A stretch of 64,000 bases of DNA from Campylobacteraceae bacterium (lineage in GTDB: Bacteria > Campylobacterota > Campylobacteria > Campylobacterales > Campylobacteraceae), in the NCBI GenBank assembly GCA_031266555.1, contig JAISAU010000020.1:1-64000 (forward strand), read 5' to 3'. Shown piece after piece: positions 1 through 60,458 of this stretch (the first letter of the stretch is position 1; each line of letters starts with the position of its first letter). The translations under genes were made by a program, and so were the position numbers. Under the pieces are notes generated by a model, which saw only the letters and a list, made by a program, of their open reading frames with translations, did no database searches and was not told where the DNA came from.

Positions 1-566
1 AAGGAGTGCATGCATTAAATCAAGTTGTACATGTTGATATTCCGCTTTTTTGGGAAGATTTGGAAAAATTAAAAAACAGCTTAAATCGCCTGCTTTCTCC
101 TTATATACATGTAAGAAATGTATTTCCTCTTAACTTACATGCAAGGTTTGACGCTAAAAAAAGATTATATAGATATGTTTGCTATAGCGGCGAATACAAC
201 CCGCTTTTAAGCGATTACGCGCTTTTTTTGCCAAAATTTGATTTGAATCTCATAAATAAAGCTCTTTTGCTTTTCATTGGAAAGCACGACTTTGGCTTTT
301 TTAAAAAAACCGGCAGCGAAACAAAAGACGATATAAGAATTTTATATAAAGCGGACGCTTACATGTATAAAAACTTTTTGATTTTTAGATTTTTAGCGAA
401 CGGTTTTTTGCGCTCACAAGTAAGGCTCATGACAAGCGCGGCGTTAAGCGTACAAGATGGCGCGCTCACATTCTCGGCGTTAAAAGCTCAAATAGATAAA
501 AAAAACCGCGTTTTTACTAAAGCCGCGCCTGCTTGCGGATTGTATTTAAGCAGAGTCTACTATTAA
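1..566 (+). CDS. truA: tRNA pseudouridine synthase A, 3' portion (5' end outside window)
   Basis: TruA converts uridines 38-40 of the tRNA anticodon arm to pseudouridine in the cytoplasm. The reading frame is open to the left edge, and the first residues read G-V-H-A-L-N-Q-V. This matches the family signature R-T-D-x-G-V-H-A, so the GTG at position 6 is an internal valine codon and not a start. The catalytic Asp lies just outside the window. Later family features are visible: the YRYVCY strand near window residue 55, the HDF-FFKKTGS segment, and FLRSQVRLM in the C-terminal domain. About 186 residues of a usual 240-270 are present. The gene converges on the ABC-F gene across a 228-bp gap with three TACATGTA copies. 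Confidence 0.9.
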   Translation, partial: GVHALNQVVHVDIPLFWEDLEKLKNSLNRLLSPYIHVRNVFPLNLHARFDAKKRLYRYVCYSGEYNPLLSDYALFLPKFDLNLINKALLLFIGKHDFGFFKKTGSETKDDIRILYKADAYMYKNFLIFRFLANGFLRSQVRLMTSAALSVQDGALTFSALKAQIDKKNRVFTKAAPACGLYLSRVYY

Positions 567-794
567 AATGATTGGGTTGCTTGAAAGCGCTTGTATTTGT
601 TGTTTTCTCATTCGCAAAAATTTGAAGCGTAATTTTGTCAGCTTACATGTAACAATACGGCATTAATCGATATTTTGTCATTTGCGAAAAAGCGCGACAA
701 TGCATAATTGCTGCTTTACATGTAAGCGTTAAATTGGAACTGTTTTTTTATAAACTCAATATGTCGCTACATGTAAGCTCAAATTAATGCTAAA

Positions 795-2270
795 TTACAA
801 TTCTATAATTTTGGTAGCGATTTTTTCCGCGAATGTCTTATCATGCTCCACAAATAGCATTGTGGGGCGATACTCTAAAAGCACATTTTCAATCTGCATT
901 CTTGAAAGCACGTCAATAAAATTCAACGGTTCATCCCATATGTATATATGAGCGCTCTCGCATAAACTTTTCGCTACAAGAACCTTTTTCTTTTGTCCGT
1001 CGCTAAATTCGCTCATATCTTTTTCAAATTGTTCGCGCGAAAAATCCAATTTGCGTAAAATAGTTTTAAAAAGACTCTCGTCTATTTGTGAGATTTTCGC
1101 GAACTCTTTTAAACTCCCTTTCAGCGTCATAGTTTGCGGCACATAAGATATTTTCAAATCGCTTTGCATATAAAGATTGCCCTCGTGAGTTATATTCTCG
1201 CCTAAAATCAATTTTATAAGAGTGCTTTTGCCGCAACCATTCTGCCCTTTCAGCCAAATTCGCTCGCCGTTTTCAATCGTAAAATTTAATTTTTCAAAAA
1301 TAGTTTTACCATAAAAAGCGCTGAGATTTACCGCCTCTATCAATCTCTTTCGCGGATATTCCAAAAAGGAAAGTTTCAAATCCGGAGCGTATTCAAGATT
1401 TTTCAACAGTTTAGATTTTTCATCGGCGGCTTTATTGAAACGATTTTGAGCGTTTTTCGCTTTTTGCATAAGTTTGGCGGATTTATGTCCGATAAAACCT
1501 TTGTCCGCCGCTACGCCGCTGCCTTTATCTATATGGTATTTACCGCGTTCGGTCTTATTTGACCATGCGATTATCTCTTTTGCCGCTACTTGTAAACGCT
1601 TAATATTTTGAGAAAGTTTTTTATTTTGCGATAACTCAAAATTATCTTTGTACTCTTTGTTTTGCTGCCATGAAGAAAAGTTGCCGTATTGCACCTCTAA
1701 TCCTGTTTGATTTATGGACAAGATATGATCTACGCAATTGTCCAAAAAATAGCGGTCATGGGATATCAAAATGAAACCTTTTTTATATTTTAAATACTCC
1801 GATATATTTTGCACAGCTTTAGTGTCCAAATGGTTGGTAGGTTCGTCCAAAAGTAAAAAATTATTCTCTTTTAAAAATAAAATTGCCAGTAGTGATTTGG
1901 TCTGTTCGCCGCCGCTTAAAGTTTTAAACGCTCTTTTTAGAACAGTTTTGTTTAAATTTAAAAGTGAAACTTCTTTTTCTAATTGCCACAGTTCGATAAA
2001 AGGACAAATTTTTTGAGCTATTTCAAGCACAGTTTTTTCAGACTCATTTATTTTAAATGGAAAATAGTCAAAATTCACCGACGCCGATATAGCGCCTGCG
2101 TATTCGTATTGTCCCATTAAAAGTTTTAAAAGAGTCGTTTTGCCGCGCCCGTTTCTACCGATAAAACCTAATTTCCAATCGGTATCCAAAACTATGGAAA
2201 TATTTTCAAAAATAGCATCGCTCCCATTTTCATAAGAAAAACTTAGATTTTTAATATTTATCGGCGACAT
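795..2270 (-). CDS. ABC-F family ATPase, Lsa/Vga-like ribosomal protection type
   Basis: This is a soluble twin-ATPase ABC-F protein with no membrane domain; such proteins bind the ribosomal E site. The first nucleotide-binding domain has Walker A GRNGRGKTT, signature LSGGEQ and Walker B LLLDEPTNHLD. The second has GQNGCGKST, a variant signature SDGQ, and IWDEPLNFID. The TDWKLGFIGRNGRGKTT wording, the KGFIGHKSAK linker segment and the variant second Walker B are those I know from the Lsa/Vga/SalA antibiotic-resistance group, not from EttA/Uup. The start at 2270 gives 491 aa, the usual length. The upstream ATG at 2309 would add 13 unconserved residues and lacks a ribosome site. Resistance to lincosamides, streptogramins or pleuromutilins is inferred only. 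Confidence 0.85.
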   Translation of the reverse strand: MSPINIKNLSFSYENGSDAIFENISIVLDTDWKLGFIGRNGRGKTTLLKLLMGQYEYAGAISASVNFDYFPFKINESEKTVLEIAQKICPFIELWQLEKEVSLLNLNKTVLKRAFKTLSGGEQTKSLLAILFLKENNFLLLDEPTNHLDTKAVQNISEYLKYKKGFILISHDRYFLDNCVDHILSINQTGLEVQYGNFSSWQQNKEYKDNFELSQNKKLSQNIKRLQVAAKEIIAWSNKTERGKYHIDKGSGVAADKGFIGHKSAKLMQKAKNAQNRFNKAADEKSKLLKNLEYAPDLKLSFLEYPRKRLIEAVNLSAFYGKTIFEKLNFTIENGERIWLKGQNGCGKSTLIKLILGENITHEGNLYMQSDLKISYVPQTMTLKGSLKEFAKISQIDESLFKTILRKLDFSREQFEKDMSEFSDGQKKKVLVAKSLCESAHIYIWDEPLNFIDVLSRMQIENVLLEYRPTMLFVEHDKTFAEKIATKIIEL

Positions 2271-2554
2271 GTAGAGTTTCCCGCAAAAAGTTTTTATACA
2301 GTTTATCAAAAAATATCATTTTAGTAAAATCGTAACCGATTATTGATCGTATTTTGGATTTATTGTTGGCGCTTATTGCGTTAGAGCGAGAGTTTGAAAT
2401 ATATCGCATAATCAACCAAAGAAACAGCGATAGTTATTGTGCGGATTTTGGCTTTGCTTTGAACTTTTTAAAAGCGTGTTTATTTGACCTTCAACGCAAA
2501 CTTAGCATACTTCAAAGTTTATATAAAATGGGTCGTATTTTATTGCTTTTTTTA

Positions 2555-3775
2555 TCAAGTATTTTTATATACGACTTTGCCTTTAGCTATGGTATAAACT
2601 ATTTTTCCCTTTAGCGTTTCGCCTGAATATACAGAATCCGATATCTTTAATTTTTCCTCACATGTAGGGTCAAATATAACTAAATCAGCGTCAAATCCCT
2701 CTTTTATCTCGCCTTTTGTTTTAAGACCTAAAATTTTCGCGGGCGTTTTGCTTGTCAAATTTATAAATTGCTCTATAGTTATCAATTTTGTACTAATTAA
2801 GTAGGTAAAAATGAGCGGCATATAATCGCAAACAGCGTGTATGCCGTATGCCGCTTCCTCAAAAGCCACGTCTTTATAGAGAATAGAACGCGGAGAATGC
2901 GCGGAAGTTAAAATATCTATGCCACCAACCAACTCTTCCAACAACTTTTGGCGCTCGTCTTCATCTCGCAAAGGCGGTTTGATTTTCGCATAAGTATTAA
3001 AATCATCGCAACTTGTGTCATTTTTGAGCAAATGGTGAATGGAAACTTCGGCATAAGTTTCTATTGTCTTTTTAGCCTCCTTTATAAGCTCGACGGAATG
3101 TTTGGTAGATAATGTTTGAAAAAGAATCGGCATATTATAGTATTTTGCCATCTCGCACAGTTTGGCTACCTCGCTGGTTTCCGATATCTTTGAAATACCC
3201 GGAAGTCCGAGTTTAAACGCTACTTCGCCGTCATTCATTACGCCGTTATCATCCAAATCATCGTCGTAACAATCTATCAAAAAAGGCGTTTTTCTCATTT
3301 TGGCGTATTGCATGCCGCGTCTAATGAGATTTGAATTCACATGTGATTTGCCCCATATGGCAATCGCGCCGTTTTGTATTAAAGTAGCGATATTGTTGAG
3401 CTTGTTTGTCTCCTCGTTCGCTAAAGGAGCCGATAAAAGTATAGTCGCGGGCAGAGTATTTACTTTAGCGCTTAAAAGCTCTAAAAAACTCTCATTATCA
3501 AGGCGAGGAATAAAATCAGGAACAATGAGAGCCGTTGTGACTCCGCCTCTAACGCAATCTTTGAAAAGAGTATTTAAATTTTTTTGATTTAGCGTATCGT
3601 TTTTGAGTCTTACATGTAAGTCTATGAGCCCCGGAAACAAATATGCTCCGTTGGCATCTATCGTATCATTGTCAATATCTGCGATACTGTCCGCTATTTT
3701 AACTATTTTATCATTTTCAATAAGAATATCTTTTAGGGTTTTATCGTCGGATATTTTGGCGTTTTTAATTAACAT
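2555..3775 (-). CDS. Dihydroorotase-like protein (type I fold, probably non-catalytic)
   Basis: The 406-aa sequence has the amidohydrolase layout of type I dihydroorotase: the N-terminal sandwich, FPGLIDLHVRL, a long barrel, then ILGL-KG-I-EGFDADLVIFD at the C-terminus. Active enzymes carry H-x-H after the first strand, a His before the E-D segment, and D-H-A-P-H. Here these read H-V-R, C-Y-D-D and S-A-H-S-P-R, so several zinc ligands and the catalytic Asp are missing. Known PyrC' proteins with such losses serve as scaffolds for aspartate carbamoyltransferase PyrB; that role here is inferred. An AGGA ribosome site lies before the ATG. gpsA ends 63 bp upstream on the same strand. Confidence 0.75.
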   Translation of the reverse strand: MLIKNAKISDDKTLKDILIENDKIVKIADSIADIDNDTIDANGAYLFPGLIDLHVRLKNDTLNQKNLNTLFKDCVRGGVTTALIVPDFIPRLDNESFLELLSAKVNTLPATILLSAPLANEETNKLNNIATLIQNGAIAIWGKSHVNSNLIRRGMQYAKMRKTPFLIDCYDDDLDDNGVMNDGEVAFKLGLPGISKISETSEVAKLCEMAKYYNMPILFQTLSTKHSVELIKEAKKTIETYAEVSIHHLLKNDTSCDDFNTYAKIKPPLRDEDERQKLLEELVGGIDILTSAHSPRSILYKDVAFEEAAYGIHAVCDYMPLIFTYLISTKLITIEQFINLTSKTPAKILGLKTKGEIKEGFDADLVIFDPTCEEKLKISDSVYSGETLKGKIVYTIAKGKVVYKNT

Positions 3776-7684: not shown

Positions 7685-7890
7685 TTAAAGCCCTGCGTTT
7701 GAAAAATTTATGGGTGATTATAGCAATCAAAGAATTAAGATTCTATGAATTTTCTCATTATATTGTATATTTCAAAACTTTATCCTCGCTATTTATTTAT
7801 TACATGTAATTAGTTTACATGTAGCAATATTCTAAGCTTAATTTGTTTTTTAAATCGCAATCTTTTTATATATTTATCCCTACATGTAAC

Positions 7891-7931: not shown

Positions 7932-10900
7932 TTAAAACTTATATCTATATCCGATATTGGCTTTCATGCTGTCAAATTCGCTGCCTTTTTGTAAGCCTCC
8001 TTCCAAATAGAGATTATGATTGTCTCCGCTTATCGTAACTCCAAGAGCATTATCAAATATATTTTGGTTCATTTTATACTCTTTTTGCGTATTTTGAGCG
8101 TCGTTAAAAGAGTACGTTGTTTTACCGCCAAGCTCTTTCGCGTAACCTGTTTTAAAATAAAGATTCGCGTTGTCTTTCAACTTATATCCAAACACTACGC
8201 CAATTCTTGCGAGATACGAGTCAAAACCGTCGATATTTGTTTTGAGGTTATTTGACGAGCTTACGCTAAAACTTCCTTGCTTAGCGTAAGTTAACTCAGC
8301 TTGCGGCTCAATATAGATATTTTCCATATCGTATCTCTTGCCTGCTTCAACGGACAAAGAGAATCCCTTGCTGTCTCCGCTTCCCTCTACGGTTAGATTG
8401 TTTGAGGTGCGAGTGTTAAAATCGTTATCGTTTTGAACATATTTGACAAGCGTGTCTATGTAAAAATTATTGTCGCTTTTATATAAAGCGTACGCGCCAA
8501 AATCATACATGACACTTTCGCTATCTCCTATACTGTAATCCGTATCCGATTTTAAATATCCAAAAGTAACGCCTGCGTAAAGTTTGCCGTTCTTTACATA
8601 AGAGAGTTTATCCGCTCCTATTTGAATACCGTAATATCCGACGCTGTCTATTCTAGTATTATCGTCAAATGAGCCGAGTTTTCCAAAATATGTTCTCGCC
8701 CATACATCGCCGTTATCTTTATCGTTTGAGCGCAATTCTCCCATTCTTTGAAGAATGTTTTGCGTATTTATATAGTTAGACAGATAGTTTACGGTTAAAA
8801 AGCCTATTGAAGAAACGGCGGCGTTGTTGAGAACGGCTCCGCTTCCTGGAACAATACTGCCTGATGGAGTTACGTCTCCGATATAATAGCTTTTCGTTGC
8901 GTTGTCAAAATTTAAATTGTAAGTATAAGCTCCGATATCGGCGTGTCCTCCAAAATTAGCTTGATAATCTCCCGCAGGATTTAGATGTTGCACGACTATC
9001 AAGGATAAATTACCGTTTGGATTGTACCCTCCTGTTGTTTTATCGTAAAAGTTTACAGTATGCGATCCTGATGAACTATTAGAGATAAATATCTTATCTT
9101 GCATGTCGTTATTAGCGTCAACTCTTACGTTAAATACGCCATTTCCCAATATATTATCCGCTATGAGCGACGTTGGACTTGACAAAGGAGAATTATTGTA
9201 ACTTAAGTCAACTATAGCTCCGTTTGAAAGCTCTAAATTACTAACAATCGAATCTTTTGACACTATCCATTTGGAATTATCAAACGATAGATCCATAACT
9301 CCGCCGTTTGCTAAAGACGCGGAACCTACAAACGAAGACTGGCTGTCAAACGCTAAAGAGATAGCTCCGCCGTTATCGCTTAATAGATTTCCAAATACAT
9401 GAAGAATATTGCCGTTTGAACTAACTTGTGCGCCATTCGCGTATATGGCGTAAGAACTATCGTCAAAAGCGTTTAAAGACGTTTCATCGTCAAGTATTAG
9501 ATTGGAACCTCCCGCTACATGTAGAGCGTAAGAGTTTGGACCGTAAACGTTTATAGTAAGTGCGTTAAAATCATACGTATATCCATCGTCAAGATACACG
9601 GCTTTTGAGTCGGAACCGTAAGTATTTATATTTAAAGCGTCGTTGAAATGGACGTTTTCGTTGAACGTGTTGTTGCTGGTGCCAAAATTGCCCGCTAAAT
9701 TGTTTATTGCGAAAACACTGGTATTGTCACCTAAAGAATTTAGAGTTGTCTCGCCATTAAAGTCAATCGATGAATTTGCATATGTGATTTCAAAAATTTT
9801 GGTATTGTTGCCATTCGCGTTCAACGTAGATGTTCCCTCAAAAACAACGCTGGTAGGAAAAACGGTTAGTGCAGTCGGCGAATAATTTCCAACATATACA
9901 ACAGAAGCTTTGTCTCCGCTTACACTTAAATTGGCATTATTTCCCAAAGTGATATTGCCGCCTTGTCTGGCATAAATAGCGTTAGCCGCGCTGGAACCTC
10001 CGTAAGCGGGAGACACGAGGTTTGCGTTTCCGCTTGTGCTGATGATAGCGTTATCGCCTATAATCACTGCCGCGCCACCTACAGAATTTGCAAGAGTTGA
10101 TGAAGACCCCCAAGAATATACGCCGATACTTGAATCCCCTGTTGTAATAATTTTTGCGTTATCTCCCAAAGTAATATACCCTTGAAGAGCATAAATAGCA
10201 TGCGAATATCCGCCTGTTGTAAGTATGGTGGCGTTATTACCAAAAGTAATCTTCGGATAATAATACACCCCGCCCAAGCTAGCTCTGCTATCGGCTTGAA
10301 CCGCGCTGGTAGGACCTTTGCCCAAGCCTCCCGTTGTTGCTATAAAAGCGTTATCACCGATATCAACTATGGAAGCGCCGTTAACCGAAAGTCCGACAGA
10401 GATTTCCGGTCCTGAGGTGATAGCTTTTAAATTGTCTCCTATTGTCAAGTATGTATAACCATTTGGCAAACTATCTCCGCTAAGAACTTGTATCGCCATT
10501 GTGCCGTTTCTACCCACACCCGTTACGTCCACCGTCAAATCATTGCCGATAGTGACGTTTGAACCTCTGCGAACTTCAACGCCATAAGAAAACCATCCCC
10601 CACCAGGTGTACCGCACGAACCGCATCCCGTATCTCCTGTTGTGGAAATCGTCGCGCCATTTCCTATTCTTACGTTAGAATTGTTATCTGCTCTCATTCC
10701 AAAGCTACCGATACCGGTTGTAGTTATGCTTAGATTATCCCCGATATCAACATCAGCAAAATGCGCAACCAAACCTTCGGAACTACTTTTGCCTGTGCTA
10801 TGAGCTTGCGATCCTTCGGTTAATATATTTAAGTTATTACCGATAATAACAGCCGCTTTATTCGCAGCATTTGCTCCTCTGGCGTTTATACCTTGCGAAT

Positions 10901-11560: not shown

Positions 11561-12129
11561 TATTTTTAAAATTAAAATAGGCAAAGATAAAGCCATAAAA
11601 AAATGAAGGGCTATGTCAAAAAATAAACGCTGTATCTCTTTTGCTGTTAACAGAAATGAATAATTCGCCGTAAACCGTACAGTTGTTAATAGAAGCAAAT
11701 ATCGTCGCGCTACCAAGCTCGACATTTTCTTTTTATCACTGTGGATTTTTATTTCGCGCTTTATCGCAACGAGTTTTTCGCGACAACTTGTTTTATAATT
11801 TTAGCGATGAGATGGCTGGAGAAAGTTACGTTTGATAATATTTAAACTACTCTGCTAAAAATAAATTATATTTTAGCGTTTTTACCAATCAAATAGTTTG
11901 CGAAAGCGTTAAATGTAACGAAATAAATTTCGCGTAACTTAATATCGCTGAAAAATATTTTGGCTTACATGTAAGGATATTAAAATATGAGAACCTCAAT
12001 TTGTATTATTATGCAAAAAATGTATATTTTTCTTGTTACATGCAACGTTTTTAATTGATATTTATATGATTTATATAAACTCCGTAGCGTAAAATAATTA
12101 AAATATAAACTAACCGAATAAAATTATTA

Positions 12130-16797: not shown

Positions 16798-16877
16798 ATT
16801 TATAAATTTACATGCAAAAAACCTTACATGTAGCGTAATATAAATCGCGATGATGGATATTTCTCGAGGAAAATAAA

Positions 16878-36988: not shown

Positions 36989-37061
36989 TTTTTTTTAAAT
37001 TTTATGAGCTAAATACCAAATTGAATGGTAAAATATTGTAAAAAAGTAAAAAGGTTTTGTA

Positions 37062-43588: not shown

Positions 43589-44386
43589 ATGATAACCATC
43601 AGAGAAATCTCAGTAAAAAATCTTATAACAAAATCAAAACTTCCGTCCGTTGATTTTGTTATCAATCCTTATGTCGGTTGTCCTCATAAATGTATATACT
43701 GCTATGCGGAATTTATGAAAAAATTCACCAATCATAAAGAAAAATGGGGCGATTTTTTAGACGCAAAAACACGCTATGAAAAGATTGATATTGAAAAATT
43801 CAAAAATCATAATATATTCTTAAGTTCCGTCACGGACGCATACAATCCGTTTGAGAAAAAATACAATATCACAAAACAAGTGCTGGAGCGATTCGCGAAC
43901 AGCGGCGCGAACATAAGCATATTAACAAAATCAAATCTTGTATTGCGCGATATAGAAATTTTTAAGAAAATTCCCAATATAAACGTAGGTTTTTCTATCA
44001 ACACCACAAACGACGATATCAGAAAAGAGATAGAACCTCACGCCTCAAGCATAGAAAAACGGATAGAAGCTTTAAAAATTTTGCATGGCGAAGGTATCGA
44101 CACTTGGACTTTTGTTTCGCCCATATTTCCCCAAATAACAGATTTTGAAAAAATACTAGAATTGTGCAAGCGCTTTTCCAATAGTTTTGGTTTTGAAAAT
44201 TTAAACTTAAAAAATATGTGTCGCGAGCGTGTTTTAAATTATATACAAAAGCGTCACAAAAATTTACTGCCTTTATATCAAGAGATATATACATGTAACG
44301 ATAAAAGCTATTGGCGCAAAATGTCGCAAGAGATTCATAGCTATTGCCAAAAAAACGAGATAGATTATACGATACATTTTCATTAA
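43589..44386 (+). CDS. Radical SAM protein of the SPL-like family
   Basis: The 265-aa protein has the radical SAM cluster motif C-P-H-K-C-I-Y-C (Cys31, 35, 38) after VDFVINPYVGC. The N-P-Y-x-G-C-x-H-x-C-x-Y-C context is that of spore photoproduct lyase-like proteins, which are widespread outside spore formers. The segments FMKKFTNHKEKWGDFLDAK, LSSVTDAYNPFE and ILTKSNLVLRD are also typical. The reaction is unknown. It may have reached this place independently of its neighbours, since it lies between ackA and murF with no clear pathway link. TACATGTA occurs at 44290 in the gene. Confidence 0.82.
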   Translation: MITIREISVKNLITKSKLPSVDFVINPYVGCPHKCIYCYAEFMKKFTNHKEKWGDFLDAKTRYEKIDIEKFKNHNIFLSSVTDAYNPFEKKYNITKQVLERFANSGANISILTKSNLVLRDIEIFKKIPNINVGFSINTTNDDIRKEIEPHASSIEKRIEALKILHGEGIDTWTFVSPIFPQITDFEKILELCKRFSNSFGFENLNLKNMCRERVLNYIQKRHKNLLPLYQEIYTCNDKSYWRKMSQEIHSYCQKNEIDYTIHFH

Positions 44387-47949: not shown

Positions 47950-48504
47950 TTATTGAAGTTTACTCAAAGCTTCTTTAATAAGCTCTTGAGTTGTAGCGCC
48001 TTTACATGTAAACAAAACGGCTTTTATTTTTTCGCTCTTAAATCCCAAAGCTTCCAACGCCAATTTTGCTTCGGTTTGACTTTGAGACGACGCGCTTATA
48101 CTGCTTTGAAGCACAAATTCTCCAAGCTCGACCAATATCCTTTTAGCGCTTTTAAGCCCGATACCGGGAACTTTAATCAAAGCGTTTGTATCCGAAGATG
48201 TTAAAGCTTTGGCGAATAAACCAGGAGTAAGAGTCGAGCAAATAGCAAGAGCGGTAGAAGTTCCTATACCGCTTAGTTTTATCAACTGTTCAAACATTCT
48301 CTGTTCGTCCGAGTCCAAAAATCCAAACAGCAAATTCGCGTCTTCTCTTATTATTTGCGTTATTTTAAGCTCTACTATGTCGCTGTTTATTGACGCCGCG
48401 CAATATAAAGATACGGCTATTTTGTAAGTAACTCCGCTTAATGTCTTTACATGTACGCTTGTTGGTTCTTTAATTACCACTTTTCCTTCAATGGCTGCTA
48501 TCAC
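47950..48504 (-). CDS. ruvA: Holliday junction DNA helicase subunit RuvA
   Basis: RuvA binds four-way junctions and loads the RuvB motor for branch migration. The 184-aa protein has the N-terminal OB fold (MIAAIEGKVVIKEP), the FGFLDSDEQRMFEQLIKLSGIG region and two helix-hairpin-helix motifs (LSGIGTSTALAI and VPGIGLKSAKRILVELG). A C-terminal UBA-like domain (about 140-184) contacts RuvB. Length is normal. The ATG at 48504 lies in the end of the FapA-like gene (17-bp overlap). Two TACATGTA copies fall in the gene, at 48003 and 48448. Confidence 0.95.
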   Translation of the reverse strand: MIAAIEGKVVIKEPTSVHVKTLSGVTYKIAVSLYCAASINSDIVELKITQIIREDANLLFGFLDSDEQRMFEQLIKLSGIGTSTALAICSTLTPGLFAKALTSSDTNALIKVPGIGLKSAKRILVELGEFVLQSSISASSQSQTEAKLALEALGFKSEKIKAVLFTCKGATTQELIKEALSKLQ

Positions 48505-49402
48505 TGTTTACTTCCACATTTTTGGTTTCAAGCTGGAACTTATTGTCCCCGCTGTATTTTAGATATATCTCGCCTATATTATCATCTTTTTTCGTATAAT
48601 ATTCCAAATCGTACTTTGGCAAAATAAATAAAATCTGATTATTTTCTCTCCAAATCGAATTGCTAATAATCTTTCCGTTTATTATGATATCATTTTCAAG
48701 CTTTAAAAACTCGTCTTCATCTTCTTTTATATACTGCTCCAACCCTTTAATCACATCTATGAGCGTATCGTACTCTTTTGTGTTCATATTAAACTCTTTA
48801 ACACCCACAAGCAAATCTACATGCGGTATATCGCCGCTTTGTCTCATCTTTTCAATATGCTCTCTGTGCTCTTGCACTTTTCTTTTTTGCTCTTCTAACT
48901 CTTTTAATTTGCGCTCTAACTGACTATTTGTTTTGGCAAACTCTTTTTTAAATAAATCCACTCTATCGTATAAGTTTGAGATTTTACTTAAGATATAGTC
49001 GTCTACTGGCGGTTTTATCACTAAACTATTTTTTGTGCCTTTCACATTGTTTATCTCAATCGTATTGGTTGATATGATTTTGTTTCCTGTGCCAAGATTA
49101 TTGATGTATATATAATTTGCCGTTACCTCTCCGTTTTCCAAAAAATCCACCTTAACCGTATTGCCTACTACCTTACCGCCTTTTATATGCTTTATCTCAA
49201 CATCACCTCCTTCAATCACGCCGCAATGTTCGTTTACATATACTTGCTCTGCGGTTATATAAGACTTTTTATGAGTAGAATCAGCCTCTACATGTAAAGC
49301 CTTTATCTCGCCTTTACCTACTCTTTTATCTATTATTAATTTAGATATCTCAACTGCTGCCTCACCCTCGCCATTTCTTTTAGCTTTAAACAATATTGCC
49401 AT
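48488..49402 (-). CDS. FapA-type (DUF342-like) beta-helix/coiled-coil protein
   Basis: The 304-aa protein starts with beta-helix-like repeats (about 10-130: EIKALHVEADSTHKKSYIT, VNEHCGVIEGGDVEIKHIKG, GEVTANYIYINNLGTGN). A long coiled coil follows (about 145-190: LFKKEFAKTNSQLERKLKELE), then a short C-terminal domain. The layout resembles DUF342/FapA proteins. Such proteins in Campylobacterota are of unknown role and may form filaments or polymers. The start has AAAGGA 10 bp before it. Adjacent to ruvA and divergent from murJ. Confidence 0.65.
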   Translation of the reverse strand: MAILFKAKRNGEGEAAVEISKLIIDKRVGKGEIKALHVEADSTHKKSYITAEQVYVNEHCGVIEGGDVEIKHIKGGKVVGNTVKVDFLENGEVTANYIYINNLGTGNKIISTNTIEINNVKGTKNSLVIKPPVDDYILSKISNLYDRVDLFKKEFAKTNSQLERKLKELEEQKRKVQEHREHIEKMRQSGDIPHVDLLVGVKEFNMNTKEYDTLIDVIKGLEQYIKEDEDEFLKLENDIIINGKIISNSIWRENNQILFILPKYDLEYYTKKDDNIGEIYLKYSGDNKFQLETKNVEVNSDSSH

Positions 49403-49548: not shown

Positions 49549-50961
49549 ATGATTTTTCGCGCATTTTTTACAAACAGTTTTGGCATATTGGTATCGCGAG
49601 TATTTGGATTTGTACGCGATCTTTTGACGGCAAACGTCCTTGGGGCAAATATATACAGCGATATATTTTTCGTGGCTTTCAAACTTCCGAATCTGTTTCG
49701 CAGGATATTCGCCGAAGGGGCGTTTACGCAAGCTTTTTTACCCGCGTTTACAAAATCTCGCACAAAAGGAGTTTTCGCCTTACATGTATTTATAAGATTT
49801 TTCATTTTTATAGCTTTTTTGACGACTCTTGTCGTTATATTCAGCCCGTTTGTGACAAAAATATTCGCTTACGGTTTCAGCGACGAGCAGATTTCGCAAA
49901 CCGCGCCTTTAGTCAGCATAAACTTCTTTTATCTGTCGCTTATATACATAGTAACTTTCATAGCCTCTCTTTTGCAATATCGCTCGCATTTCGCCACTAC
50001 GGCGTTTTCTACCGCGCTTCTTAATATAGCTATGATAATCTCGCTTCTTTTAAGCGACCCGACAACTCCTGAAAAAACCGTTTACTATTTAAGTTTTGGT
50101 GTTGTGGTAGGCGGATTTTTGCAAGTTTTGGTTCATATACTCGCTATGAAAAAGATGGGACTTTTTCCTTTGATATTTGGAGCCGTTAAATATAGAAAAA
50201 CTCACAAGCAAAATGAGACTGAACGCAAAACTTTCTACAAGAACTTTTTTCATTCCGTTCTTGGCGGAAGCACCGTTCAACTATCCTCTTTCATAGACAC
50301 GTGGCTTGCCAGCTTTTTGGCGGCGGGAAGTATTAGCTATCTGTATTACGCTAATAGAATTTTCCAACTGCCTTTGGCGCTTTTTGCCATAGCTTTGTCT
50401 ATCGGCATTTTTCCACGTGTAACAAAACTTATCAAAAAAAACGACGAAAGCGAAGCGATAAAACTTTTAGAAAAAGGGTTTTGGTTTTTGGCGTTTTTAC
50501 TGTCTGTTTCAGCTCTTAGCGGAATTTTGCTCAGCGAACCGATAATAAAAATCCTCTTTGAACGAGGCTCGTTTAACTCTTACGATACGATTATATGCGC
50601 TAAAGTTTTATCAATGTATTTACTGGGACTCATACCATTTGGGCTGTCTCGCATATTTTCACTTTGGCTTTTCGCGCAACAAAGACAAAAAGAGGCGGCT
50701 ATGATCTCGGCTGTGTCGCTTGGAGTCGGAGTGATATTCTCTTTTGCGCTCGTATATCCGCTTGGCATTGTAGGACTCTCCCTCGCCAACTCCATAAGCG
50801 GACTTTTTTTGTTTATTTTGACTGTAAGAGCGTTCGGAGCGAAAACATTTTTTAGCATACTCAAACTCAAAAAGTTATCTCTTTTATTTATAGTTTTGAT
50901 TATTGAGTTTTTCATGTTATTGGCTTTAAAAGAACTCTTGCGTTCGCTTTCATTCATTTGA
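49549..50961 (+). CDS. murJ: Lipid II flippase MurJ
   Basis: MurJ moves lipid II across the inner membrane for peptidoglycan synthesis. The 470-aa protein begins with the family signature SFGILVSRVFGFVRDLLTANVLGANIYSDIFFVAFKLPNLFRRIFAEGAFTQAFLPAF in spirit, with the conserved arginines of the central cavity. It contains about 14 hydrophobic helices. GGSTVQLSSFIDTWLAS marks the middle of the protein. It is the first plus-strand gene of the block after the divergent promoter. TACATGTA at 49781 lies in the frame as L-H-V. Confidence 0.95.
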   Translation: MIFRAFFTNSFGILVSRVFGFVRDLLTANVLGANIYSDIFFVAFKLPNLFRRIFAEGAFTQAFLPAFTKSRTKGVFALHVFIRFFIFIAFLTTLVVIFSPFVTKIFAYGFSDEQISQTAPLVSINFFYLSLIYIVTFIASLLQYRSHFATTAFSTALLNIAMIISLLLSDPTTPEKTVYYLSFGVVVGGFLQVLVHILAMKKMGLFPLIFGAVKYRKTHKQNETERKTFYKNFFHSVLGGSTVQLSSFIDTWLASFLAAGSISYLYYANRIFQLPLALFAIALSIGIFPRVTKLIKKNDESEAIKLLEKGFWFLAFLLSVSALSGILLSEPIIKILFERGSFNSYDTIICAKVLSMYLLGLIPFGLSRIFSLWLFAQQRQKEAAMISAVSLGVGVIFSFALVYPLGIVGLSLANSISGLFLFILTVRAFGAKTFFSILKLKKLSLLFIVLIIEFFMLLALKELLRSLSFI

Positions 50962-51242
50962 GATATAAAATCATTATTGGGAGTTTTACTATGATAGCTT
51001 TAATGAAAGGTTATTCTCGTCTCAATAGTTACATGTAGTATCGTAAGAACTTTTAACATTTATAATATCCTTACATGTAAGAGGTTTTAGCGATAAAATC
51101 ATTGAATCTGTTAAGTATTTTCATCTTTCTTATCTGCTTTTTAACTTTTTATATTCATATTTTTCAACCTCTTTAGTATATAATAATAGTTTTGGAAATT
51201 TGTGTCACAGATACTATTTTAAGACTTTTAAGGAAAATTTTA

Positions 51243-53772: not shown

Positions 53773-55082
53773 AACGCATATTTTTAGTATTTATTACATG
53801 TATAGGAGTTATGATGGCTAATTCTTTGCCGCAATACGAGACGCAAACGCTCTCAAACGGACTTCAAGTTTTTGTCGTACCGATGAACAAAGGCAGCGGG
53901 GTTATAACAATGGACGTATTTTATAAAGTAGGCAGCGGCGATGAGATAATGGGCAAAAGCGGAATAGCTCATATGCTGGAACATCTGAATTTTAAATCTA
54001 CAAAAAATTTAAAAGCCGGCGAGTTTGACGAAATAGTAAAAAGTATCGGCGGTATGACTAATGCCGCTACCGGATTTGATTTTACGCACTATTTTATAAA
54101 AAGCAGCAGTAAAAATCTCTCCAAATCTTTTGAGCTTTTCAGCGAATTGATGGCGAATTTGCTCTTAAAAGACGATGAGTTTCAACCCGAACGCGACGTT
54201 GTTATGGAGGAGAGAAAATGGCGAACGGATAACTCTCCGGTTGGATATCTATATTTTAGACTATTCAACAGCGCTTTTATTTACCACCCGTATCATTGGA
54301 CGCCAATCGGCTTTAAAGACGATATAAAAAATTGGACGATAGAGGATATAAAAAATTTTCACGATACTTACTATCAACCTTCAAACGCGATAATAGTAGT
54401 GGCGGGAGATATAGAACCGAGCGTAGTCTTTAAAGAGGCTAAAAAATATTTTGGAAACATAAAAAGAAAATCTATCATCCCTAAAAAATATCAGACCGAA
54501 CCGGAACAAGACGGCGCGAAAAGAGTTTATATAACCAAAGAGAGCGAAACTCAAATGATAGCCATAGCTTATAAAATTCCTGCTTTCGATCACCCTGATC
54601 AAGTAGCTTTGAACGCTATAAGCGCGCTTTTAGGCAATGGCAAAAGCAGTCGTTTATATGAAGTTTTAGTCAACCAAAAAAATCTTGTAAATCAAATATC
54701 CGCTTACAATATGAGTTCGCGCGACCCAAATCTTTTTCTGTTTTTGGCGATTTGCAATCCGAATGTGAAAGCTGAAGATGTAGAAAAAGAGATTTTAACC
54801 ATAATAGAAGATTTGAAAAAAAATAACGTGGGCGAGGACGAACTTAAAAAAGTCAAAACAAATACAAAAGCCGATTTTATATTCGGACTTGAGAGTTCAA
54901 GCGGTATAGCGAATCTTTTCGGAAGTTTCTTGGCAAGAGGTTCTCTTGAACCGCTTTTGAATTATGAAGAAGCCGTAAACGCTCTTAAAGTAGATACGAT
55001 ACGAGAAGTCGCAAACAGATATTTTATTGAAAAACACTCGACAACCGTTATATTAAGAAAGGAGGCGTCCTCCAATGAATGA
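53769..55082 (+). CDS. Exported M16 family zinc peptidase
   Basis: The 437-aa protein has a signal peptide (about 1-17), and the inverted zinc motif H-M-L-E-H (His68, Glu71, His72) in [14 protein letters not shown]. The distal Glu lies in the V-M-E-E-R-K segment. The second, catalytically inactive-type M16 half follows (about 235-420). It is probably a periplasmic processing peptidase; the PqqL/YmxG group is similar in size. I take the ATG at 53769, coupled to the pyrD stop. A TACATGTA copy falls in the signal-peptide codons as I-T-C-I. Confidence 0.92.
55060..55077 (+). promoter_or_regulatory. dapA: dapA ribosome site inside a short hairpin
   Basis: The strong AAGGAGG just before dapA is followed at once by CGT and CCTCC, so GGAGG and CCTCC can pair with a 3-nt loop directly before the ATG at 55075. 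The stem also encodes the last M16 codons, and ribosomes finishing the M16 gene could open it. Confidence 0.5.
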
Positions 55083-55971
55083 CAATTTCTTGCAAGGAGC
55101 AATGACTGCTATTGTAACGCCTTTTAAAAAAGGTAAAATCGACGAGCAAAAATATGAAGAGTTGATAAAACGACAGATACGAAACGGTATAGATGTCGTA
55201 GTGCCTGTGGGAACAACGGGTGAAAGCGCTACTTTAAATCACGAAGAACATCGTCGTTGTATCGAAATAGCGGTAGCTACATGTAAAGGCACAAACGTTA
55301 AGGTTATGGCGGGAGCCGGTAGTAACGCAACGCACGAAGCGATTGATTTGGCTAAATTCGCCGAATTTCAAGGAGCGGACGCCATACTTTCCGTAACTCC
55401 ATATTATAACAAACCGACACAAGAAGGACTTTATCAGCACTATAAAACTATAGCAAATTCCATAAGTATACCAGTGCTTTTATATAACGTCCCCGGACGC
55501 ACAGGTTGCGATATACAACCAAATACGGTTATCAGACTATTTAAAGAGTGCCGCAATATCTTTGGCGTTAAAGAAGCTACGGGTTCTATAGACAGATGCG
55601 TGGATTTGCTCGCGAACGAACCGAAACTCTATCTTATAAGCGGCGAAGACGCGATAAACTACCCTATTCTCTCAAATGGCGGAAAAGGAGCGATTTCGGT
55701 TACGGCGAATTTATTGCCCGATAAAATAGCGGATTTGACGCACAAAGCTTTAAATTCGGATTATTTGGGTGCGAAAGCGATAAATGACGAACTATACGCG
55801 ATAAATAAAGCGCTTTTTTGCGAAAGCAATCCAATACCTATAAAAGCGGCTATGTATCTTGCAGGTCTTTTGGATACGCTTGAGTATCGCCTGCCGCTTG
55901 TGCCGCCAAGCGAAGAACATTTGAAATTGATAGAACAAACAATGAAAAAATATATTATAAAAGGATTTTGA
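55075..55971 (+). CDS. dapA: 4-hydroxy-tetrahydrodipicolinate synthase
   Basis: DapA condenses pyruvate and aspartate semialdehyde, the first step of lysine and diaminopimelate synthesis. The 298-aa TIM barrel has [45 protein letters not shown] with catalytic Tyr, and FGVKEATGS with the Schiff-base Lys. It overlaps the M16 gene by 8 bp and the next gene by one. TACATGTA at 55278 encodes T-C-K. Confidence 0.97.
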
Positions 55972-56738
55972 TGAGGGGGAAAACACTGGTCATTAGCGGC
56001 GGAACAAGAGGTATAGGCAAAGCGATAGTATATGAATTTGCCGCCAATGGAGTAAATATAGCTTTTACATACAATTCAAACGAGCAATTAGCGCAAGAGC
56101 AAGTTAAAGATCTGGAAAGTAACTACGGCATAAAAGCTCGCGCTTATAATCTTAATATTTTAGAACCCGAAACTTATAAAGAGCTGTTTTTGCAAATTGA
56201 TAAAGATTTTGACAGAGTTGATTTTTTTATTTCAAACGCGATAATCTCAGGACGCTCCGTAGTTGGCGGATATACAAAATTTATGAAATTAAAACCGCGC
56301 GGTATTAACAATATTTTTACCGCGACTGTAAACGCGTTTGTTATAGGTGCGCAAGAAGCCGCCAAAAGAATGGAAAAAATTGGCGGCGGGAGTATCATCT
56401 CTATCTCTTCTACAGGCAATCTTGTATATATAGAAAATTATGCGGGACACGGTACATGTAAAGCCGCGGTTGAAGCGATGGTAAGATACGCCGCTACGGA
56501 ACTTGGAGAAAAAAATATCAGGGTAAACGCGGTAAGCGGAGGTCCTATAGATACGGACGCTTTAAGAGCTTTTACAAATTATGAAGAGGTTCGTGATAAA
56601 ACGGCTGAGCTTTCGCCTCTCGGACGAATGGGGCAACCTTCGGATTTGTCGGGAGCTTGTCTTTTTTTATGCTCAGATAAAGCTTCTTGGATTACGGGAC
56701 ACACATTTATTATTGACGGCGGAACGACATTTAAATGA
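55971..56738 (+). CDS. FabL-like enoyl-ACP reductase/SDR oxidoreductase
   Basis: The 255-aa SDR protein has the cofactor loop GGTRGIGKA. Its active site Y-x6-K is in Y-A-G-H-G-T-C-K, and NAVSGGPIDTDAL is very close to NAVSGGAIDTDAL of Bacillus FabL. The segment INNIFTATVNAFVIGAQEAA also fits. FabL reduces enoyl-ACP in fatty-acid synthesis. The assignment is from memory of the Bacillus sequence. The start is the ATG at 55971, sharing bases with the dapA stop. The M-R extension from a TTG upstream is less likely. TACATGTA at 56453 sits inside the active-site codons. Confidence 0.8.
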   Translation: MRGKTLVISGGTRGIGKAIVYEFAANGVNIAFTYNSNEQLAQEQVKDLESNYGIKARAYNLNILEPETYKELFLQIDKDFDRVDFFISNAIISGRSVVGGYTKFMKLKPRGINNIFTATVNAFVIGAQEAAKRMEKIGGGSIISISSTGNLVYIENYAGHGTCKAAVEAMVRYAATELGEKNIRVNAVSGGPIDTDALRAFTNYEEVRDKTAELSPLGRMGQPSDLSGACLFLCSDKASWITGHTFIIDGGTTFK

Positions 56739-57280: not shown

Positions 57281-58369
57281 ATGTTTGGCGCTTCATTTGG
57301 TCATTTTGGTATTGTTTACGCCCTTTTGGCGCTCTCGTTTTTAATATTTTTTCATGAATTCGGACATTTTATCGCCGCACGTATATTTAAAGTAAAAGTC
57401 GAAATTTTCAGCATAGGTTTCGGTAAGAAAATTTTAACTAAAAAGATAGGCGAAACAACATATTGTTTAAGCCTTATTCCTCTTGGCGGATACGTGCAGA
57501 TGAAAGGTCAAAACGATATGGACCCTTTGGAAAAGAGCGACGATGAGGATAGTTACAACAAAAAAGCTCCTTGGAAAAAGATAATTATACTTTTTGCAGG
57601 ACCTCTCGCTAATTTTGTATTGGCGTTTTTCCTTTATATATCTATAGGCAATCTGGGAGTTAAAGAACTTGCTCCGCAAATAGGAAATTTTTCAAATAAT
57701 TCAATCGCGCAAAATGCCGGACTTCAAATAAACGATACCGTCAAAGAGATAAACGGCGTACATGTCAACATTTGGGACGACGTAAAGAAAAATATCCAAT
57801 CAAGTACCGGCGAAATTGATATGTTAGTGGAACGAAACGGCGAATTGTTACATGTAAAGCTTACTCCGCAAATTGGAGACAATAAGAATATATTCGGCGA
57901 AACGGTGCAAGAAAAACTTATAGGAGTGTCTCCCACATACTCGATTTTTACTATGTATTACAGTGGATTTGAAAGTATAATTTACGCTAAGCAAGAAGTT
58001 GTAAAAAACTCTTTACTGATTTTTCAAACGCTAAAGAAGTTGATAGTAGACCGTATCATATCTCCAAAAGAACTTGGCGGAATAATCGCCATAGTAGATA
58101 TAACATCCGACGCCGCGAAGTTGGGTTTAAGCGCTTTTTTAATGCTTACAGCTTTGATTTCTGTAAATCTTGGTGTGCTAAACCTGCTTCCTATTCCGGC
58201 GCTTGACGGCGGGCATATAATGTTTAACATATACGAACTATTTTTTAGACGCCCTCCGAATGAGAAAGTATTTTACTATATGACGGTAGCTGGTTGGGTA
58301 CTTTTGATGTCGCTTGTAGCGTTTACTATTTACAATGATATAGCAAGAATTATCGCTCAAAAGGTATAA
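57281..58369 (+). CDS. rseP: RseP-type site-2 zinc metalloprotease
   Basis: RseP family proteases cut within the membrane, for example anti-sigma factors or remnant signal peptides. The 362-aa protein has HEFGH (25-29) in the first helix, the FAGPLANFVLAFFLY block, one PDZ domain (about 115-200), and NLLPIPALDGGHIMF with the third zinc ligand. This is the short, single-PDZ form. It lies 3 bp after pgsA and before the YggS gene. Confidence 0.93.
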   Translation: MFGASFGHFGIVYALLALSFLIFFHEFGHFIAARIFKVKVEIFSIGFGKKILTKKIGETTYCLSLIPLGGYVQMKGQNDMDPLEKSDDEDSYNKKAPWKKIIILFAGPLANFVLAFFLYISIGNLGVKELAPQIGNFSNNSIAQNAGLQINDTVKEINGVHVNIWDDVKKNIQSSTGEIDMLVERNGELLHVKLTPQIGDNKNIFGETVQEKLIGVSPTYSIFTMYYSGFESIIYAKQEVVKNSLLIFQTLKKLIVDRIISPKELGGIIAIVDITSDAAKLGLSAFLMLTALISVNLGVLNLLPIPALDGGHIMFNIYELFFRRPPNEKVFYYMTVAGWVLLMSLVAFTIYNDIARIIAQKV

Positions 58370-59046: not shown

Positions 59047-59531
59047 AAACTTAGCAAAAAGCAAGTTTAAAAGCGTAAAAAGCTCATTATTTGTCTTTAC
59101 ATGTAAGGTATTTTAAATCGTCTAAAAGAGAAAATAGTAGACTTCAAATCTCTTATTTGTCCTAGAATAATATAGTCGGCATTGAAACCTCTAATCTTTC
59201 AGTTCTTGCGAAATTTCCTTACATGTAGCGCAAAAAGATTTAAAATCTTAGTAAGTTCGGTTGAATTTAACGTTTAACTTCACTGTTTACGCAAATAATT
59301 TGCCTTAAAAATCAAAATTTATCGCTCTTACATGTCAAATCTACAGATAACTTGTTGCGTTAATAGCCCTTTCGCGACGTTTTAAATCTCTACATTAACT
59401 CTTAAAAACTAAAATTTAGTCTAATTTTGACAATCGTCATACGTACATGTAGCGATATTTATGATACTCTTGAGATTTATTTAGTCTAACAAAATAGCGA
59501 TAAATTCGTTATTAGCGAGCGTTTTGATAAT
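59047..59531. other. Convergent non-coding gap with three TACATGTA copies
   Basis: The gap between yggS-like (plus) and bioB (minus) holds exact TACATGTA at 59098, 59220 and 59444 and TACATGTC near 59331. Its right end (59461-59515) resembles 17221-17290. No gene or RNA is recognised. Confidence 0.7.
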
Positions 59532-60368
59532 CTAATGACATACGACCGATATATCAAATCCGTATTTTCTTATCATATCAATATCGCTTGTAGGCTCGTC
59601 GCCCTGAGCGTTCAAGTACCCGCCTATTATGATAGCGTCTATCCCGACTTCAAAAATCTCTTTTTGATTAGAGCCAAAAACCGTCTCTCTGCCGCCCGCC
59701 ATCATAAGTCTTGTGTTTGGCAAATAGCTTTTCGCGAGCTTTATGCACTCTATCGCTTCGGTTCTACCCATAACATCTTCTTTTATCGGTAATGCCGTAT
59801 TTGGAATGTAAAAATTCACAGGCGACGTAAAAGGATTTAGCGAACTTACCGCCTTATAAAACTCCTCTCTGTCTTTCCAACTTTCTCCTATGCCCATAAT
59901 GCCGCCCACGCACAACATAAGACCGACGCTTGCCGCGTTCTCGCATGTTTTGTATCTCTCGTCCCACGTGTGAGTGGTGCAAATCTTTGGAAAAAAATCT
60001 TTTGAAGTTTCCAGATTGTGATTGTAACTATCGACGCCTGCGCTTTTGAGTTCTTTTAAAGACTCTTTATCAGCGCTTCCACAACACGCTATCAGATGAA
60101 AGTCAAACTCTTTTTTTATCATCTTGGCGGCGCGGCTTATATATTCTGTTTTTTGCGAAGTTAAGCTGCGACCTGAAGTTACTAAGCAAAATCCAAGCGC
60201 TCCGACGTCGGCAAAATATTTAGCCTCTTTCATTATCTCTTCAAGTGGCTTCTCTTTGTAAATTTTCACACCCGTTTTGTATTTATGACTTTGCGTACAG
60301 TACGCGCAATCCTCTTTACATCCGCCGTTACTGACATTACAGATTGAACATAAAAATATCTCTTTCAT
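59532..60368 (-). CDS. bioB: Biotin synthase
   Basis: BioB inserts sulfur into dethiobiotin by radical SAM chemistry. The 278-aa protein is of the short form: the CxxxCxxC motif is at Cys17, 21 and 24 in G-C-K-E-D-C-A-Y-C, directly after the start. NHNLET, GGIMGIGES, PFTSPVNFYIPN, and RLMMAGGRE, with the Arg of the 2Fe-2S site, are present. No other biotin gene lies nearby. It has its own upstream region (60369-60458) with a TACATGTA copy at 60426. Confidence 0.94.
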   Translation of the reverse strand: MKEIFLCSICNVSNGGCKEDCAYCTQSHKYKTGVKIYKEKPLEEIMKEAKYFADVGALGFCLVTSGRSLTSQKTEYISRAAKMIKKEFDFHLIACCGSADKESLKELKSAGVDSYNHNLETSKDFFPKICTTHTWDERYKTCENAASVGLMLCVGGIMGIGESWKDREEFYKAVSSLNPFTSPVNFYIPNTALPIKEDVMGRTEAIECIKLAKSYLPNTRLMMAGGRETVFGSNQKEIFEVGIDAIIIGGYLNAQGDEPTSDIDMIRKYGFDISVVCH

Positions 60369-60458
60369 TTTTTCTTTCTTCTTGTTTTTGTTTACGTGTT
60401 AAAAAATCTTATTGCAAAATTAGGCTACATGTAAAGATAAAAAAACTTCTTATCAAAC

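What the first reader, a model, noticed from the sequence alone, without database searches (positions are those of the whole stretch)
106..60433. TACATGTA is a highly iterated palindrome in this genome
I counted about 45 exact TACATGTA sites by eye in 64 kb, against roughly 2-3 expected from base composition, with about 20 one-mismatch forms. It is enriched in gaps and at convergent gene ends but is also tolerated inside conserved genes (era, dapA, fabL-like active site, ruvA). Flanks are unrelated, so the 8-mer itself is what is maintained. The closest known analogue is HIP1 (GCGATCGC) of cyanobacteria; uptake sequences and methylation targets are other options.
Basis: partly seen in the sequence, partly recalled or inferred. 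Interest (0 to 1): 0.8.

Follow-up and report, generated by a model that had tools for sequence, protein, structure and literature searches.

The report
Methylation-linked iterated palindrome in Campylobacterota
The eight-letter palindrome TACATGTA is repeated about once every 1.7 thousand bases across this gut bacterium's genome and many of its relatives, built around the target (CATG) of a partnerless DNA-methylating enzyme, and it is probably a genome-wide mark for recognising the species' own DNA.

Summary
Confirmed and stronger than claimed. The window holds 45 TACATGTA (0.7-0.8 expected); the 1.52-Mb draft genome holds 874, against 32 for the reversed word. The organism is a Campylobacteraceae MAG.

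The motif is patchy across Campylobacterales: nearly all Sulfurospirillaceae (up to 1,727 copies), some Sulfurimonadaceae, three Campylobacteraceae genera. Flanks are not unrelated: Sulfurospirillum uses TTACATGTAA. Some relatives use another CATG-centred octamer instead (ATCATGAT, up to 1,901).

The motif goes with a solitary D12 adenine methyltransferase whose R-M relatives sit beside ICEA (NlaIII-like, CATG) nucleases. REase-linked copies: CATG depleted, motif high in 0 of 45 loci. Copies without one: 35 of 74. Order-wide odds ratio 9.7, but 15 of 50 motif-rich genomes lack the enzyme. Aligned sites are conserved 66-73% at 65-80% identity; neighbouring octamers 8-15%.

So this works like cyanobacterial HIP1, with a new word in a new phylum. 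HIP1's mismatch-repair model fails here: MutL was not found in 26 genomes. ComEC is in all 27 tested, and a transformation-type operon lies in the window. I favour methylation-dependent self-DNA recognition during transformation, as with CtsM/RAATTY in Campylobacter jejuni. That function is inferred, and methylation was not measured.

The parts
106..113 (.). TACATGTA site 1
   Evidence: exact match
360..367 (.). TACATGTA site 2
   Evidence: exact match
644..651 (.). TACATGTA site 3 (gap)
717..724 (.). TACATGTA site 4 (gap)
768..775 (.). TACATGTA site 5 (gap)
3611..3618 (.). TACATGTA site 6
7801..7808 (.). TACATGTA site 7 (gap)
7816..7823 (.). TACATGTA site 8 (gap)
7881..7888 (.). TACATGTA site 9 (gap)
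9516..9523 (.). TACATGTA site 10
11966..11973 (.). TACATGTA site 11 (gap)
16825..16832 (.). TACATGTA site 12 (gap)
16990..16997 (.). TACATGTA site 13 (gap)
17810..17817 (.). TACATGTA site 14 (gap)
20531..20538 (.). TACATGTA site 15, first of seven in one 1.1-kb gap
20568..20575 (.). TACATGTA site 16 (same gap)
20610..20617 (.). TACATGTA site 17 (same gap)
20668..20675 (.). TACATGTA site 18 (same gap)
20707..20714 (.). TACATGTA site 19 (same gap)
20800..20807 (.). TACATGTA site 20 (same gap)
20894..20901 (.). TACATGTA site 21 (same gap)
21460..21467 (.). TACATGTA site 22 (in indole-3-glycerol phosphate synthase gene)
24172..24179 (.). TACATGTA site 23
26148..26155 (.). TACATGTA site 24 (convergent gap)
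30270..30277 (.). TACATGTA site 25
30542..30549 (.). TACATGTA site 26 (in Era-type GTPase gene)
38230..38237 (.). TACATGTA site 27 (in GspE/PilB-type ATPase gene)
44290..44297 (.). TACATGTA site 28
44404..44411 (.). TACATGTA site 29
45018..45025 (.). TACATGTA site 30 (in Mur ligase gene)
45859..45866 (.). TACATGTA site 31
48003..48010 (.). TACATGTA site 32 (in ruvA)
48448..48455 (.). TACATGTA site 33 (in ruvA)
49289..49296 (.). TACATGTA site 34
49781..49788 (.). TACATGTA site 35 (in murJ)
51030..51037 (.). TACATGTA site 36 (gap)
51072..51079 (.). TACATGTA site 37 (gap)
53795..53802 (.). TACATGTA site 38
55278..55285 (.). TACATGTA site 39 (in dapA)
56453..56460 (.). TACATGTA site 40 (in enoyl-ACP reductase gene)
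57849..57856 (.). TACATGTA site 41 (in M50 peptidase gene)
59098..59105 (.). TACATGTA site 42 (convergent gap)
59220..59227 (.). TACATGTA site 43 (convergent gap)
59444..59451 (.). TACATGTA site 44 (convergent gap)
60426..60433 (.). TACATGTA site 45 (gap)
31290..40078 (+). [quoted passage not shown]
   Evidence: Pfam PF00263, PF00437, PF00482, weak PF04612; assignment to transformation is inferred from the Campylobacter jejuni cts genes

Best explanation
TACATGTA is a highly iterated palindrome of the HIP kind, built on CATG, the target of a solitary N6-adenine methyltransferase of the HpyIM/M.NlaIII type. The enzyme is not in the window; it lies at G000:C13:91443-92432 (minus strand). It descends from IceA/NlaIII-type restriction-modification systems; once the nuclease is lost, CATG is no longer avoided and one particular CATG octamer builds up to about one per 1.7-2 kb. 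Each genome has its own octamer or flanks ('dialect'), set by something other than the methyltransferase. The most likely use is self-recognition of DNA in natural transformation: the uptake machinery prefers DNA carrying the methylated palindrome, so uptake plus recombination enriches and preserves the sites. Shown: the iteration, its distribution, the flank dialects, the link to the solitary methyltransferase, the conservation of sites. Inferred: CATG specificity and active methylation in this genome. Inferred without direct test: the uptake role.
For: Iteration: 45 in the window, 874 in the genome. Patchy but recurrent in Campylobacterales. One D12 methyltransferase in this genome and in its sister G012, none of PF01555 type. 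Order-wide, motif-rich genomes carry it in 35 of 50 against 68 of 350 others, odds ratio 9.7. CATG specificity: R-M relatives have PF05315 ICEA beside them and avoid CATG (median O/E 0.40, down to 0 observed of 74 expected and 1 of 104); hpyIM and iceA1/nlaIII homologs are a CATG system (PMC4687069). Motif-rich loci: 0 of 45 REase-linked, 35 of 74 not. Alternate CATG octamers occur with the same enzyme: ATCATGAT 1,901, 1,288 and 685 copies, CTCATGAG 61-73. Sites far more conserved than neighbours (0.66-0.73 against 0.08-0.15 at 65-80% identity). In the window's genus, relatives with the enzyme (G012 left out) keep the octamer at 6 of 19 aligned sites, relatives without it at 1 of 33 (p = 0.007). 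Uptake: ComEC in 27 of 27 genomes; secretin-GspE-GspF operon in this window; density and gap enrichment like known uptake sequences (comparison from memory); C. jejuni imports only DNA methylated by CtsM at RAATTY (PMC10046745, PMC8437040).
Against: 15 of 50 motif-rich genomes have no detectable intact copy of this enzyme (two keep remnants), and one of them (G207) still has 1,201 sites. Many genomes with the enzyme have no iterated octamer. ComEC is equally present in motif-poor genomes, so it does not discriminate. A Sulfurospirillum diekertiae plasmid also carries the octamer at 0.35 per kb, which an uptake-only account does not predict. Genomes are related, so the p-values overstate independence; the sister genomes are incomplete MAGs.
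Confidence: 0.5

Rival explanations
1. Repair ratchet, as proposed for HIP1: methylation-directed mismatch repair favours mutations that complete the palindrome next to the methylated site, so the octamer accumulates without serving a function.
For: All the HIP-methyltransferase correlations seen here match those of Elhai 2015 (PMC4390886). In this genome, one-mismatch forms are enriched at the outer positions (CACATGTA 11-fold, TGCATGTA 4-fold) and not in the CATG core. Seven sites in one gap suggest a per-site process.
Against: MutL was not found above cut-off in any of 26 genomes, including complete motif-rich ones, while 11 of 14 control genomes exceed the cut-off. In Sulfurospirillum the one-mismatch forms are not enriched (0.8-fold) and aligned sites are either perfect or wholly changed.
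Confidence: 0.13
2. The octamer is the binding site of a chromosome-organising or other DNA-binding protein (nucleoid, segregation, recombination), tuned by methylation, and is kept by selection for that binding.
For: Extended, species-specific flanks (CTTTACATGTAAAG in Sulfurospirillum) look like a protein footprint wider than the methyltransferase target; strong conservation of positions; the same flank dialect occurs with several methyltransferase branches.
Against: Octamer and flanks change between related genera, unusual for a core chromosome function; clusters such as seven sites within 370 bases are not even spacing.
Confidence: 0.25
3. Remnant of restriction-modification: CATG recovers after loss of the nuclease and the octamer has no role.
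For: REase or second-methyltransferase remnants beside the enzyme in G003, G005, G007 and G155; CATG O/E returns to about 1 in loci without the nuclease.
Against: Relaxed avoidance would restore CATG in all contexts, but only one octamer rises some 50-fold (164 against 3.1 and 147 against 2.9) while CATG with both inner flanks changed stays at 0.6-0.7 of expectation; sites are conserved.
Confidence: 0.05
4. Transcription terminator, operator or other gene-regulatory element.
For: Enriched in gaps, most in convergent ones.
Against: More than half of the sites in the 270-kb sample lie inside coding sequence (90 of 164); thousands of copies; an 8-10 base perfect palindrome without a loop is a poor hairpin; Sulfurimonadaceae and ATCATGAT genomes show little or no gap enrichment in small samples.
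Confidence: 0.04

Closest known systems
HIP1 (GCGATCGC) and alternate HIPs of cyanobacteria (Elhai 2015, PMC4390886)
   Same: Palindromic octamer at about 0.3-1 per kb, centred on the target of solitary methyltransferases, replaced by alternate palindromes in some relatives, target otherwise not over-represented, R-M-bearing relatives avoid the target.
   Different: Different word and core (CATG, adenine methylation expected, not GATC/CGATCG), different phylum, MutL absent, strong enrichment in intergenic gaps, 10-base dialects.
CtsM/RAATTY methylation-dependent DNA discrimination in Campylobacter jejuni (PMC10046745, PMC8437040)
   Same: Same order; type II adenine methyltransferase; a 368-aa Campylobacter homolog, about 28% identical and of the length reported for the RAATTY enzyme, falls in the same PADLOC family as this enzyme.
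   Different: RAATTY is short and very frequent (about 28,000 motif positions, PMC4335053); uptake has not been tested in any TACATGTA genome; that the homolog is CtsM is inferred from length and conservation only.
DNA uptake sequences of Neisseriaceae and Pasteurellaceae (DUS dialects, PMC3630211; USS)
   Same: Similar density, enrichment in gaps, species dialects of one word.
   Different: Those are not palindromic and are not known to depend on methylation; no uptake receptor has been identified here.
IceA/NlaIII-HpyIM CATG restriction-modification
   Same: Same methyltransferase family by neighbourhood and sequence; remnants of the system beside the enzyme in the window's own genus.
   Different: No nuclease gene next to the enzyme in this genome or its sister; target enriched in one context instead of avoided.

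Membership tests
Highly iterated palindrome (HIP) | Short palindrome iterated genome-wide far above Markov expectation | tested here: met
   45 against 0.7-0.8 in the window, 874 in the genome
Highly iterated palindrome (HIP) | Methyltransferase for an internal part of the word present in the genome | tested here: met
   One D12 enzyme in G000, family CATG-specific by ICEA neighbours and CATG avoidance; specificity of this very protein not assayed
Highly iterated palindrome (HIP) | Enzyme is solitary (no cognate nuclease beside it) | tested here: met
   No REase found within 4 kb in G000 and G012
Highly iterated palindrome (HIP) | Alternate words with the same core in relatives that lack the main word | tested here: met
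   ATCATGAT in G076, G168, G071; weak CTCATGAG in G006-G008
Highly iterated palindrome (HIP) | One-off forms deviate mostly at the outer positions | tested here: met
   Met in G000 and G012; not in Sulfurospirillum, where one-off forms are not enriched
HIP by methylation-directed MutS/MutL repair (Elhai model) | MutL present | tested here: not met
   0 of 26 genomes above cut-off
DNA uptake sequence | Competence machinery present | tested here: met
   ComEC 27 of 27; secretin, GspE, GspF operon in the window
DNA uptake sequence | Genome-wide excess of about one site per 1-2 kb, more in gaps than genes | tested here: met
   0.57 per kb; 2.80 per kb non-coding, 0.37 coding
DNA uptake sequence | DNA with the word is taken up preferentially | not testable with these tools
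   needs a transformation assay
CtsM-type methylation-dependent uptake | Word methylated in vivo and methylation required for uptake | not testable with these tools
   needs long-read modification data and a knock-out
HpyIM/M.NlaIII CATG methyltransferase | D12 class enzyme with intact catalytic motifs | tested here: met
   PF02086 180.6 bits, DLFAGTG and DPPY present
HpyIM/M.NlaIII CATG methyltransferase | Recognises CATG | tested here: inconclusive
   inferred from ICEA-linked relatives and CATG avoidance; no direct comparison with the HpyIM sequence was made

The most novel reading that the evidence does not exclude
Campylobacterota genomes are written in dialects of a methylated palindromic self-recognition code: a solitary CATG methyltransferase left over from restriction-modification marks the core, and an unknown reader of the flanks (perhaps the DNA-uptake receptor) picks the octamer or decamer, so the word can switch between related genera.
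Probability: 0.4. Interest if true: 0.87.

Novelty: new variant of a known kind. Interest (0 to 1): 0.75.

Why it matters
The function of HIP1 has been open since 1995. Campylobacterota offer independent, replicated cases in genera with cultured members (for example Sulfurospirillum diekertiae), in a phylum where methylation-dependent DNA uptake has been shown in C. jejuni and where MutL, needed by the published HIP1 model, was not found. The question what a highly iterated palindrome is for becomes directly testable: delete one methyltransferase, measure uptake of DNA with and without the word. It would also link HIPs, uptake sequences and decaying restriction-modification systems, so far treated as separate subjects.

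Tried and rejected
Rfam on the window: nothing at gathering threshold, so the site-rich gap is not a known RNA. PF01555 methyltransferases: absent from G000, G012, G031 and G055, so not the common factor. MTase lineage as the cause of the flank dialect: rejected, since TTACATGTAA occurs on several MTase branches and flank types mix among related enzymes. Solved structures for the methyltransferase profile and for ICEA: none. NCBIfam: no model for the enzyme. Literature: no bacterial paper in the held library mentions TACATGTA as a repeated word, and no Sulfurospirillum methylome or uptake paper was found; subscription journals are not held. No structure prediction was run, since the fold was not in doubt.
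Full report
WHAT IS THERE. The window holds exactly 45 TACATGTA sites; 100 dinucleotide shuffles give 0.67 on average and at most 4, a second-order Markov model 0.84. No other octamer in the window comes close. The whole draft genome (1.52 Mb, 75% complete) has 874 sites against 32 for the word read backwards. The genome belongs to a genus of Campylobacteraceae. Sites are 7.6 times denser in non-coding DNA than in genes (2.80 against 0.37 per kb in 270 kb), densest in convergent gaps (5.5 per kb). Seven lie within 370 bases of one gap, with no Rfam match there.

FLANKS. In the window the next base outwards is A 54, G 18, C 10, T 8 (p = 1.4e-8). In twelve Sulfurospirillaceae genomes A follows in 95% of cases, then A 65%, then G 50%, so the word there is TTACATGTAA within CTTTACATGTAAAG. 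Genomes fall into an octamer type with purine preference (window genus, G205, G359, G288) and a decamer type (most Sulfurospirillum, and g10 and g12 of Campylobacteraceae).

DISTRIBUTION. In about 400 genomes of the order the word is near background in most families, but high in almost all Sulfurospirillaceae (f20; up to 1,727), in several Sulfurimonadaceae (f16) and in a few Campylobacteraceae. Family names are inferred from matches of G-handle contigs to named records (for example G155 = Sulfurospirillum sp. Kmv13, G205 = Sulfurimonas sp. RIFOXYD12_FULL_33_39, G055 = S. diekertiae). Densities lie at about 0.3-0.8 per kb. Inside the window's genus counts run from 5 to 874. Some relatives use a different CATG word: ATCATGAT 1,901 and 1,288 in G076 and G168, and 685 in G071, a Sulfurospirillaceae genome with only 28 TACATGTA. 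CTCATGAG is mildly high (61-73 against about 5) in G006-G008.

THE METHYLTRANSFERASE. This genome has one D12-class (PF02086) adenine methyltransferase, 332 aa, at G000:C13:91443-92432, minus strand; G012 has its 86% identical ortholog. Relatives of the enzyme in other phyla and in Helicobacteraceae stand next to an ICEA gene (PF05315, E = 1e-114), the iceA1/NlaIII nuclease family, whose partner hpyIM is CATG-specific (PMC4687069 and PMC2749054). Loci with a nuclease beside the enzyme have CATG at a median 0.40 of expectation (0 observed of 74 expected and 1 of 104 at the extreme); loci without one 0.93. The iterated octamer occurs in 0 of 45 nuclease-linked loci and 35 of 74 others (p = 1e-9 by Fisher, not corrected for relatedness). 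In the window's genus G003, G005 and G007 still show fragments of the nuclease or of a second methyltransferase, while G000 and G012 have none. The suggested path is R-M, loss of nuclease, solitary methyltransferase, iterated word.

ASSOCIATION ACROSS GENOMES. Taking five times the control and at least 100 copies as motif-rich (TACATGTA or ATCATGAT), 35 of 50 motif-rich genomes have the enzyme at E below 1e-100 against 68 of 350 others (odds ratio 9.7, p = 1.7e-12). The 15 exceptions include G288 with a 93-aa remnant and G408 with a split gene. Within Sulfurospirillaceae the density is higher with the enzyme (median 482 against 242 per Mb, p = 0.04), but within its main genus the difference is not significant (p = 0.11). 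Loss followed by slow decay would explain this; a second enzyme of the same specificity was not excluded. The MTase tree puts TACATGTA genomes on several separate branches and TTACATGTAA genomes on about four, so the flanks are not dictated by which MTase lineage is present. That tree has unsettled support and long branches.

SITE HISTORY. In pairwise alignments of Sulfurospirillaceae stretches, TACATGTA is identical in the other genome in 66-73% of cases at 65-80% identity, where octamers 18-36 bases away are identical in 8-15%, other CATG octamers in 6-21% and other palindromes in 11-31% (pairs are not independent and many stretches lie around the MTase gene). When a site is not conserved the CATG core is usually gone too. 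In the window's genus the sister G012 keeps 13 of 19 sites, and CATG in 17. G011, G013 and G009, without the enzyme, keep 0 of 19. Excluding G012 and G004, relatives with the enzyme keep the octamer at 6 of 19 sites, relatives without at 1 of 33 (p = 0.007). G004, which lacks the enzyme but still has 246 copies, keeps 4 of 12. The numbers are small, some genomes are incomplete, and sites were chosen as present in G000.

MECHANISM. A HIP is maintained here, but the published repair model for HIP1 needs MutL. None of 26 genomes, most over 90% complete, has a match above the MutL cut-off; the weak hits (E around 1e-4 to 1e-7) cover short stretches of other proteins. What these genomes do have is ComEC (27 of 27), and the window itself carries an operon with a secretin, a GspE ATPase, a GspF protein and small accessory proteins (31290-40078), the kind of machinery C. 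jejuni uses for transformation. C. jejuni imports only DNA methylated by CtsM at RAATTY (PMC10046745, PMC8437040), and a 368-aa Campylobacter D12 homolog of the right length for that enzyme falls in the same PADLOC family as this one. A methylated, iterated, dialect-forming palindrome enriched in gaps is what uptake bias plus recombination would leave. I give about 0.5 to this as the full explanation, about 0.85 to the narrower statement that this is a HIP tied to a solitary CATG-type methyltransferase, and 0.25 to a different reader protein. Uptake and methylation themselves are untested.

CAVEATS. Methylation was not measured. CATG specificity is inferred from relatives. Gene calls are a simple ORF model. 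The order-wide sample is one genome per species and related species are not independent. The S. diekertiae plasmid that carries the octamer (14 in 40 kb, only 4 as TTACATGTAA, against 66 of 69 on the chromosome stretches) also carries its own MTase gene, whose end overlaps an IS21 transposase gene: it suggests that dialect and replicon can travel together, and it is also a site-bearing element that an uptake-only account would not require.

NOVELTY. The kind (HIP with methyltransferase) is known from cyanobacteria; the word, phylum, core, dialects and R-M origin appear new in the literature I could search. Hence new variant of a known kind.

Noticed in passing
G113 (same order, family f7), genome-wide: TAGTACTA occurs 1,188 times in 2.0 Mb (it was the control word), 17 in 28 kb against 0.5 expected: another iterated palindrome, with a GTAC core and again A/G preferred as the next base.
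   Followed up: partly
L140 and L141 (Helicobacteraceae MAGs): GCGATCGC, the cyanobacterial HIP1 word itself, is mildly enriched (10 against 2.3 and 4 against 1.2).
   Followed up: no
window, whole: GATC (57 against 192), GGCC (7 against 98), CTAG (24 against 108) and TCGA (66 against 165) are strongly under-represented, a sign of past or present restriction of several specificities.
   Followed up: no
window 31290-40078: Operon with T2SSM-like protein, secretin, AAA protein, TPR protein, GspE and GspF; likely the cts DNA-uptake genes.
   Followed up: partly
L266 (NZ_CP059996.1) 1692-2732: Plasmid pSDCE1 of Sulfurospirillum diekertiae carries a copy of the CATG-type methyltransferase whose 3' end overlaps an IS21 transposase gene; on a second plasmid of the species, NZ_CP045454.1, the gene is broken into pieces.
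   Followed up: partly
window 19983-21074: A 1.1-kb stretch without long ORFs and without Rfam match holds seven motif copies within 370 bases, each with different surroundings.
   Followed up: partly
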